In this document: in pieces, positions 18,046 through 19,407 of the stretch
Position numbering within the stretch: position 1 is the stretch's first letter
Layout: each line of letters opens with the position of its first letter
Assembly: GCA_947044405.1 (NCBI GenBank)
Contig: CAMRHE010001096.1
Location: forward strand, 62,001-126,000
Origin: Leptodactylus fallax
Taxonomy: Eukaryota; Chordata; Amphibia; Anura; Leptodactylidae
DNA length: 64,000 nucleotides
Direction: 5' to 3'
Program-made: the position numbers and the translations under genes
The notes under the pieces: generated by a model
Told to the model about the DNA's origin: nothing
Databases searched by the model: none
What the model saw: only the letters and a program-made list of their open reading frames with translations

Positions 18046-19407
18046 TTACCACTGTGTTACATCACCTTTCCTTCTAACAACACTCAATAAGCATTTGGGA
18101 ACTAAGAATATGAATTGTTGAAGCTTTGTAGGTGGAATTCTTTCCCATTCTTGCTTGATGTACAACTTCAGTTGCTCAACAGTTCGGGGTCTCTGTTGTC
18201 GTATTTTGCGCTGCATAATGCGCCATACATTTTCAATGAGAGACAGGTCTGGACTGCCTGCAGGCCCGTCTAGTACCCGCACTCTTACTACGAAGCCATG
18301 TTGTTGTAACACGTGCAGAATGTGGCTTGGCATAGTCTTGCCGAAGTAAGCAGGGATGTCTCTGAAAAAGACTGCTTGGATGGCAGCATATGTTACTCCA
18401 AAACCTGTATGTACCTTTCAGCATTAATGGTGCCTTCACAGATGTGCAAGTTACCCATGCCATGGGCACTAACACACCCCCTATACCATCAGAGATGTGC
18501 CATGGGTATTAACACAACCCCGTACCATCAGAGATGTGCCATGGGTACTAACACCCCCCCATACCATCAGAGATGTGCCATGGGTACTAACACCCCCCCA
18601 TAACATCAGAGATGTGCCATGGACACTAACACACCCCCATACCATCAGAGATGTGCCATGGGTACTAACACAACCCCATACCATCGAGAGATGTGCCATG
18701 GGCACTAACACACCCCCATACCATCAGAGATGTGCCATGGACACTAACACCCCCCCATACCATCAGAGATGTGCCATGGGTACTAACACACCCCCATAGC
18801 ATCAGAGATGTGCCATGGGCACTAACACACCCCCATACCATCAGAGATGCTGGCTTTTGAACTTTGCAGTGATAACAATCCGGACAGTTCTTTTCCTTTT
18901 TGGCCCGGAGGACACGACGTCCATGATTTCCAAAAACAATGAGAAATGTGGACTGGTCAGACTACAGGACACTTTTTCACTTTGCCATCTCAGATGAGCT
19001 CGGGCCCAGAGAAGCCGGCGGAGTTTTTGGGTGTTGTTGATATATGGCTTTCGCTTTGCATGGTAGAGTTTTAACTTGCGCTTGTAGATATAGCAATGAA
19101 CTGTGTTCACTGACAATGTTTTTCTGAAGTGTTCCTGAGCCCATGTGGTAATAGCCATTACAGAATGATGTTGGTTTTTAATGCAGTGCCACCTGAGTGA
19201 TGGAAGGTCACGGGCATTCAGTGTTGGTATTCGTCCGTGCCACTTACTTGCAGAGATTTGTCCAGATTTTCGGAATCTTTTGATGATATTATGGACTGTA
19301 GATGATAAAATCCCTAAATTCTTTGCAATTGTACATTGAGAAACGTTCTTAAACTGTTGGACTATTTGCTCACGCAGTTGTTCACAAAGTGGTGAACCTC
19401 GCCCCAT
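18046..19407 (-). pseudogene. Tc1/mariner-type transposase interrupted by tandem repeats
   Basis: The minus-strand start MGRGSPLCEQLREQIVQQFK opens a 188-codon frame with helix-turn-helix segments (CTIAKNLGILSSTVHNIIKR) and the linker to the catalytic domain (LYHAKRKPYINN). Frame disruptions follow around 18950. Then comes the ten-fold 39-bp array, which multiplies the codons for MVWGCVSTHGTSL-like sequence. Downstream the gene continues with FRDTPAYFSKT-like sequence in shifted frames and ends in GSPDLSLIENVWRIMQRKIR, which has the third catalytic Glu, and VRRKGDVTQW. It cannot be translated through as it stands. Confidence 0.86.
18461..18850 (-). repeat. Ten tandem 39-bp units inside a transposase gene
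   Basis: Units begin CATGGGCACTAACACACCCC and end near CCATCAGAGATGTGC. Starts are at 18461, 18501, 18540, 18579, 18618, 18657, 18697, 18736, 18775 and 18814, so eight steps are as expected at 39 bp or 40 bp (two steps of 40). Since 39 bp is 13 codons, most steps keep the frame and repeat a 13-residue peptide containing VWGC. Units differ at two or three positions (GGGTACT, GGACACT, GGGCACT). Confidence 0.95.

What the first reader, a model, noticed from the sequence alone, without database searches (positions are those of the whole stretch)
18461..18850. A transposase gene has amplified one 39-bp codon block into ten tandem copies
Seen: ten units of 39 bp (two of 40) lie inside a Tc1/mariner-type transposase, multiplying the codons for the VWGC motif. 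Known: minisatellites rarely arise inside transposon coding sequence at a length that is a multiple of three. Inference: replication slippage or unequal exchange after the element died, since two units are out of frame, gave birth to a minisatellite from a transposon exon. Units differ slightly, so several rounds are likely.
Basis: partly seen in the sequence, partly recalled or inferred. Interest (0 to 1): 0.75.

Follow-up and report, generated by a model that had tools for sequence, protein, structure and literature searches.

The report
Jumping gene carrying a stuttering repeat
A 39-letter stretch of a jumping gene's own enzyme code has been stuttered into repeats in many scattered copies of that gene, not just this one, so the genome holds many parallel cases of the same repeat growing or not growing.

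Summary
The array is real: window 18458-18849, ten units (eight of 39 bp, two of 40), inside the minus-strand transposase remnant of a Tc1/mariner-type element. Birth from transposase codons is right; birth in this copy after it died is not supported. In the window's own genome the same 39-mer sits at the same place in many other insertions of the element: 16 of 20 array copies with both terminal repeats have TA at both ends. One unit is the ancestral state: 31 of 40 array-blind copies, and exact counts of 197, 11 and 4 places with one, two and three units. All 74 exact multi-unit starts have the same two-base junction offset (CA in 70), so one founding duplication is likeliest, though recurrent birth is not excluded. 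Some array copies share flank markers (subfamily B); the rest look like single-unit copies. Multi-unit places not found as two-unit lie mostly on short contigs, two-unit ones more on long contigs, which fits growth in place in repeat-rich regions. Precedents: miDNA4, frog SINE/tRNA-V, Chenopodium tnp2. A new variant of a known kind.

The parts
17801..18037 (-). Terminal inverted repeat of the Tc1-like element (transposase 3' side); on the + strand it starts TACAACCCCAATTCC
   Evidence: The same ~237-bp sequence lies inverted at the other end of relatives
18038..18457 (-). 3' part of the transposase remnant; DDE_3 match
   Evidence: Pfam DDE_3 E 9.3e-06, slightly below its cut-off; alignment of relatives
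18393..18395 (-). In-frame TAA stop (CAA in the single-unit consensus) shortly after the array
   Evidence: The change is in 10 of 32 array copies, the window copy included, and 1 of 30 single-unit copies; letters checked
18458..18849 (-). Array of ten 39-bp units (two of 40 bp) made of 13 transposase codons, SLMVWGCVSAHGT
18458..18497 (-). 40-bp unit (frame-shifting), the last unit in coding order; followed by the ancestral 3' junction GGCA|TGGGTAACTTGCACATC
18654..18693 (-). 40-bp unit (frame-shifting)
18850..19440 (-). 5' part of the transposase remnant (ATG at 19405-19407) with helix-turn-helix domains; similarity to relatives stops near 19440, so the other terminal repeat is missing in this copy
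   Evidence: Pfam HTH_23, HTH_Tnp_Tc3_2; relatives continue about 100 bp to a second terminal repeat

Best explanation
A Tc1/mariner family whose single-unit consensus has an open transposase frame acquired, most likely once, a 39-bp duplication of codons lying between the first two catalytic motifs. The likeliest birth (inferred) is template switching at the ancestral site: synthesis skips TGGGTAACTTGCA between two GCA copies, reaches CATCT, then jumps back to the matching CATCT 52 bp upstream, giving a 39-bp unit with the junction GGCA|CATCTC. Copies with two or more units probably make no working transposase, but many keep both terminal repeats, so they were probably moved in trans by single-unit copies (inferred). 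Part of the array copies (subfamily B) share flank markers and so a common array-bearing ancestor. After insertion, unit number grew or shrank by slippage or unequal exchange, apparently most in repeat-rich parts of the genome (inferred). The window copy is one such insertion with ten units that has lost one end. Shown: same position and junction, separate insertions, single-unit ancestry in the sample. Inferred: one founding event, the template switch, mobilisation in trans, the role of genomic place.
For: Array and element. Same array at the same place in relatives on many contigs; TA at both ends in 16 of 20 array copies with both terminal repeats, and among 30 array copies whose outer flanks were compared only one cluster of five shares flanks. 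Single unit ancestral: 31 of 40 array-blind copies; exact anchored counts of 197, 11 and 4 for the one-, two- and three-unit spacing. Single-unit consensus open in frame. One junction: 74 of 74 exact multi-unit starts have two bases (CA in 70) between the unit end and CATCTC; none has the 37-bp form that simple GCA slippage would give. Site geometry: CATCT boxes identical at 10 of 12 bases, 52 apart, 13 bp between GCA copies. The 13-bp skip occurs without duplication in L047 and L051. Linked change: A at the first base of unit 1 in 25 of 74 multi-unit and 9 of 100 listed single-unit places, P 7e-5. Subfamily B: C5:398 G in 18 of 33 array and 0 of 31 single copies. Place: 12 of 66 multi-unit places (less the 8 found as two-unit) on the 120 longest contigs, against 7 of 11 two-unit (P 0.0036; 6 of 10 and P 0.009 if the look-alike C115 pair counts once) and at least 100 of 197 single-unit places (P 3e-6).
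Against: Outside subfamily B no flank site separates array from single-unit copies (0 sites at P<0.01), and those array copies do not cluster on the tree (12 changes against 12.07 in shuffles, P 0.59); repeated birth at a hot spot is not excluded. Subfamily B was seen in a sample chosen by array hits, while the single-unit sample was chosen by likeness to the non-B window copy; single-unit B copies may exist (the search did not complete). Contig length is a proxy for place, and long arrays may themselves shorten contigs. The 13-bp-deleted 3' end occurs in single-unit and array copies of different backgrounds (L047, L051, L050, L014, L030), so it may be a contraction product. Folding of the site is not beyond chance (z -1.33). 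The homologue test (0 of 31 with two units) is weak: the search admits only proteins up to 1.75 times the query, about 355 aa, so proteins with several units could not appear.
Confidence: 0.65

Rival explanations
1. Recurrent birth: the ancestral sequence is a slippage hot spot and the array arises anew in place, in many separate dead copies that happen to lie in recombination-rich regions. This is closest to the first reader's idea, repeated many times.
For: Non-B array copies are indistinguishable from single-unit copies in flank markers, divergence and tree position (divergence 0.034 against 0.032, P 0.54). Multi-unit places other than two-unit concentrate on short contigs. Frog SINE/tRNA-V arrays are reported to expand only in subtelomeric copies (PMC10794172, passages). 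The deletion form occurs on several backgrounds.
Against: All 74 exact multi-unit starts share one non-trivial junction, with the ancestral 3' end kept in 35 of 39 arrays whose end is visible (read by eye). A at the first base of unit 1 is in 25 of 74 multi-unit and 9 of 100 listed single-unit places, P 7e-5. The stop CAA to TAA is in 10 of 32 array and 1 of 30 single copies. In the array-blind sample array copies cluster weakly on the tree (P 0.026; 0.089 without B).
Confidence: 0.27
2. Fully inherited arrays: long arrays existed in one source element and were copied by transposition; unit number changed little afterwards, and single-unit copies came from a separate source.
For: Shared markers of subfamily B. 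Unit variants are largely shared between copies: mean unit distance within copies 0.055, between 0.062, within lower in 31 of 42.
Against: No shared order of unit types at either array end (44 and 66 of 100 shuffles reach the observed value). Unit number ranges from 2 to 99 in arrays with both ends seen, and some arrays are nearly uniform (L050, L014, L044, L045), which suggests later growth.
Confidence: 0.15
3. The array copies still encode an active transposase with a repeat-expanded catalytic domain, the 13-codon period being kept by selection.
For: The unit is 13 codons and open in the transposase frame.
Against: Length changes mostly break the frame (486 against 39) and array lengths fall in all three frames; a stop is shared by several array copies; B-lineage derived sites by codon position are 12, 4 and 9, with no third-position excess.
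Confidence: 0.02
4. Assembly artefact.
For: Tandem arrays are prone to mis-assembly; exact lengths here are unverified.
Against: Arrays with distinct unit variants occur on many contigs, most of those compared with unrelated flanks.
Confidence: 0.02

Closest known systems
miDNA4 of Xenopus tropicalis (Tc1/mariner MITE with internal satellite; Scalvenzi and Pollet 2014, known here only through passages of PMC12628747 and passages and Table 1 of PMC9659126)
   Same: Tc1/mariner element with one monomer or an array of variable number, spread by transposition
   Different: miDNA4 is a miniature element whose ancestor is thought to have captured a pre-existing repeat; here the monomer is the transposase's own coding sequence and many copies are otherwise full-length
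CficCl-61-40 satellite from the tnp2 transposase of the CACTA-like element Jozin, Chenopodium (PMC7320549, abstract read)
   Same: A ~40-bp piece of a cut-and-paste transposase gene serves as the first monomer of tandem arrays
   Different: Different superfamily and kingdom; there it became the most abundant satellite family, whereas here the arrays with visible flanks lie in copies of the element
52-bp SINE/tRNA-V minisatellite of frogs (PMC10794172, passages read)
   Same: A dispersed element whose internal segment expands only in some copies, linked to genomic place
   Different: The segment is the 3' tail of a SINE, not coding; position was mapped there to subtelomeres, here only contig length is available
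Tetris of Drosophila virilis and DINE central repeats (PMC4079207 search listing; PMC9659126 Table 1)
   Same: DNA transposons that seed satellites from tandem repeats
   Different: Repeats lie in terminal repeats or the central repeats of non-autonomous elements, not in transposase codons

Membership tests
Tc1/mariner transposon | Transposase with helix-turn-helix and DDE/DDD domains | tested here: met
   HTH_23 above its cut-off, HTH_Tnp_Tc3_2 and DDE_3 slightly below theirs; a homologue aligns to Sleeping Beauty, SETMAR and Mos1 catalytic domains
Tc1/mariner transposon | Terminal inverted repeats | tested here: met
   ~237-bp repeats at both ends in relatives; the window copy has only one
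Tc1/mariner transposon | TA target-site duplication | tested here: met
   TA at both ends in 16 of 20 array copies with both terminal repeats; the window copy can be judged at one end only
Minisatellite | Tandem units of about 10-100 bp, variable number | tested here: met
   2 to 99 units of 39 bp in copies with both array ends seen, one stretch of 129 units without an end
miDNA4-type satellite-bearing transposon | Same element with either one monomer or an array, dispersed by transposition | tested here: met
   197 one-unit, 11 two-unit, 4 three-unit exact places and 74 multi-unit starts; separate insertions
miDNA4-type satellite-bearing transposon | Miniature non-autonomous element with a captured repeat | tested here: not met
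   Elements hold about 1 kb of transposase sequence and the unit is part of it
Subtelomeric expansion of a dispersed element (SINE/tRNA-V type) | Arrays confined to recombination-rich chromosome ends | tested here: inconclusive
   Multi-unit places on shorter contigs than single- and two-unit ones; no chromosome map, no flanks of single-unit copies

The most novel reading that the evidence does not exclude
One seed duplication inside a transposase gene was scattered by transposition to many sites, then each copy met its own fate: one to three units mostly on long contigs, tens of units mostly on short, perhaps subtelomeric ones. The family would be a natural experiment in which the same minisatellite seed is tested at many positions, so that the effect of chromosomal place on repeat growth can be measured with the sequence held constant.
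Probability: 0.4. Interest if true: 0.65.

Novelty: new variant of a known kind. Interest (0 to 1): 0.47.

Why it matters
How minisatellites are born and why only some grow is usually studied locus by locus (general knowledge). Here the ancestral sequence, two- and three-unit forms and arrays of up to about a hundred units coexist in one genome on the same transposon background, with the ancestral junction preserved. That makes birth, growth and the effect of genomic position separable. It also gives an animal case of tandem repeats arising from transposase coding sequence, for which the plant tnp2 satellite is the precedent I found.

Tried and rejected
Selection for an open 13-codon insert was considered and rejected. 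A hairpin at the birth site was folded as DNA; energies are not beyond shuffles (z -1.33, -1.26, -0.29). The array in other organisms: 0 of 729 candidate proteins for the repeat peptide passed (only proteins of 44-140 aa were candidates), and 0 exact matches of a junction pattern in viral contigs and in genome contigs (these hold viruses, bacteria and archaea, so this says little). Shared order of unit types at array ends was sought and not found. Whether single-unit copies with subfamily B markers exist did not complete. Simple GCA-GCA slippage was rejected as the sole birth mechanism because it would give a 37-bp unit.

Rows dropped, hand-set or not independent: the tree used 62 of 76 copies, those with at least 550 aligned bases. 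The split into A and B arrays was by a marker rule (20 A), so marker counts of that call for B are circular and I quote instead; searches used a hand list (19 A and 22 B). Unit numbers for L047-L066 and L087-L103 were set by eye; L028 counts as 13 or 14 depending on the splitter. L009 and L010 are adjacent pieces of one contig. L087 and L090 are near-identical neighbours on C102 and count as two of the 31 single-unit copies. The outer flanks of the C1059 and C1635 stretches (L009-L011, L017, L018) were not in the flank comparison; several of them share flanking repeats. The 66 multi-unit places still contain some two- and three-unit copies whose 3' anchor is not exact. Counts by first base for the 100 listed single-unit places and the tally of 3' ends were made by eye; the 74 multi-unit places were recounted by script. 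After the recount I lowered the main confidence from 0.70 to 0.65 and raised recurrent birth from 0.25 to 0.27, because the B evidence is sample-biased and the homologue test length-limited.

Full report
Observation. The array is present at 18458-18849 with ten units, eight of 39 bp and two of 40 bp. It lies on the minus strand within a broken transposase: helix-turn-helix domains on one side, a DDE_3 match on the other; HTH_23 passes its curated cut-off, HTH_Tnp_Tc3_2 and DDE_3 fall slightly short. The unit is 13 codons, SLMVWGCVSAHGT. A full-length homologue aligns to the Sleeping Beauty catalytic domain with this block between the SDE and DN motifs. The element's left end is at 17801; similarity to relatives ends near 19440, so the second terminal repeat is missing in the window copy.

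The array is not private to this copy. The window's own genome is held (2.50 Gb, 2215 contigs, unnamed). A search with the array gave 258 matches with 40 of 701 candidates scored. I fetched 38 stretches chosen from those hits. Arrays with visible flanks sit in copies of the same element. Where blastn reaches the junctions, the transposase 3' side mostly ends at window 18442-18457 and the 5' side mostly starts at 18850-18855; in L014, L015, L024, L030, L031 and L032 one side starts further off. Unit numbers run from 13 to 99 where the array ends are seen, and one fetched stretch is array throughout, 129 units. Of 20 array copies with both terminal repeats, 16 have TA at both ends. Outer flanks were compared for 30 array copies; only one cluster of five (L014, L015, L016, L025, L027) shares flanks. 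The rest of these are separate insertions.

One unit is the ancestral state. An array-blind search with the 5' flank gave 1633 candidates and listed the best 40. The unit number is known for these 40: the window copy, two already fetched (L022, L028), and 37 fetched in pieces. Nine have two or more units (2, 2, 5, 7, 10, 13, 15, at least 16, 26) and 31 have one, some of these with small deletions in it. The list is ranked by similarity to the window copy, so it is not a random sample. Exact pattern counts over the whole genome give 197 places with one-unit spacing, 11 with two-unit and 4 with three-unit spacing between the same anchors (a fifth match holds a G/C run instead), and 74 places where a first unit is followed by a second (shorter anchor, so not strictly comparable). 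Among the 120 best of 693 protein matches, 31 are at least 280 aa; 22 have the motif once, 9 not at all, none twice. That last test is weak, because the search admits only proteins up to about 355 aa.

Birth of the unit. In the single-unit site, CATCTCTGATGG at the unit start and CATCTGTGAAGG downstream agree at 10 of 12 bases and are 52 bp apart; 13 of these bases, TGGGTAACTTGCA, lie between two copies of GCA. The unit is 52 - 13 = 39 bp and its junction GGCA|CATCTC is what results if the 13 bases are skipped and synthesis then returns to the first CATCT. Simple GCA slippage would give 37 bp without the extra CA. The 74 multi-unit starts have CA before CATCTC in 70 cases and CC, CG, AA and TA once each; first units are 39 bp in 55. 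The skip alone, without duplication, is seen in L047 and L051, and at the 3' end of the arrays L014, L030 and L050; 35 of the 39 arrays whose 3' end is visible keep the ancestral end, one more is irregular (read by eye; 45 arrays counted). The deletion form could instead be a contraction product, so the order of events is open.

Descent. On a tree of 62 copies many array copies form an array-bearing group (subfamily B). C5:398 G is in 18 of 33 array and 0 of 31 single copies, C3:283 G in 17 of 34 and 0 of 27, C3:340 C in 13 of 32 and 0 of 27. The array copies were mostly chosen by array hits and the single copies by likeness to the non-B window copy, so single-unit B copies could have been missed. 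B copies are more diverged from the single-unit consensus (0.045 outside CpG, against 0.032 for singles, P 6e-7); the other array copies are not (0.034, P 0.54). Those others show no flank marker at P<0.01 and do not cluster among single-unit copies (12 changes against 12.07, P 0.59); in the array-blind sample the clustering is weak (P 0.026, without B 0.089). Less biased is the first base of unit 1 in the exact pattern lists: A in 25 of 74 multi-unit places and in 9 of the 100 listed of 197 single-unit places, P 7e-5. The stop CAA to TAA just past the array is in 10 of 32 array copies, the window copy included, and 1 of 30 singles. B-lineage sites by codon position are 12, 4, 9. So array copies look like passengers moved in trans; no copy was tested for activity.

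Growth. 1514 units in 44 arrays were compared. Units differ by 0.055 within and 0.062 between copies; L050, L014, L044 and L045 are nearly uniform, a sign of recent re-expansion; length changes ignore the reading frame. No order of unit types is shared at array ends. In the contigs whose length I saw, contig number follows length. Of the multi-unit starts left after removing the 8 that one search found as two-unit, 12 of 66 lie on the 120 longest contigs, against 7 of 11 two-unit places (P 0.0036; 6 of 10, P 0.009, if the look-alike C115 pair counts once) and at least 100 of 197 single-unit places (P 3e-6). All 4 three-unit places are on C8-C48. In the array-blind sample the median contig is 5.9 Mb for 31 singles and 2.0 Mb for 9 multi-unit copies, P 0.002. 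Repeat-rich, perhaps subtelomeric, surroundings are the natural reading, but long arrays may also break contigs.

What is known. A frog study reports that a 52-bp part of SINE/tRNA-V expands only in subtelomeric copies and proposes recombination as the driver (PMC10794172, passages). Reviews describe miDNA4, a Tc1/mariner MITE of Xenopus with one monomer or an array (PMC12628747, passages; PMC9659126, passages and Table 1). In Chenopodium a ~40-bp piece of the CACTA tnp2 transposase starts satellite arrays (PMC7320549, abstract). PMC6947457 (passages) gives short direct repeats as the proposed first step of some minisatellites. In seven searches, of which I saw the listings and the papers named above, no Tc1/mariner case with a transposase-coding unit appeared; subscription papers are not covered.

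Verdict. A new variant of a known kind: a transposon-borne minisatellite made of transposase codons, most likely from one founding duplication, with later growth that appears to depend on place. The host species was not identified.

Noticed in passing
window 21536-22030: A 31-bp minisatellite of 16 units; related sequence also lies in the array-bearing stretches L010, L011 and L024.
   Followed up: partly
window 7726-7987 and 44311-44584: Two 27-28-bp minisatellites about 36 kb apart are related to each other (about 75% identity); the second also matches L011, L018 and L042.
   Followed up: partly
window 40751-41020, 42743-43096, 43126-43291: Three neighbouring arrays share a 29-35-bp motif.
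   Followed up: partly
L014, L015, L016, L025, L027: Array-bearing copies in one duplicated neighbourhood; four of the five also show an 84-bp tandem unit that looks like zinc-finger repeats (label recalled, not tested).
   Followed up: no
L042 array (C47): The 34-unit array shows a block of unit types repeated in the same order, a higher-order repeat.
   Followed up: no
L064 (C79): A single-unit copy runs into different sequence, apparently another Tc1-like coding sequence (by eye), just after the unit site, as if two elements were joined.
   Followed up: no
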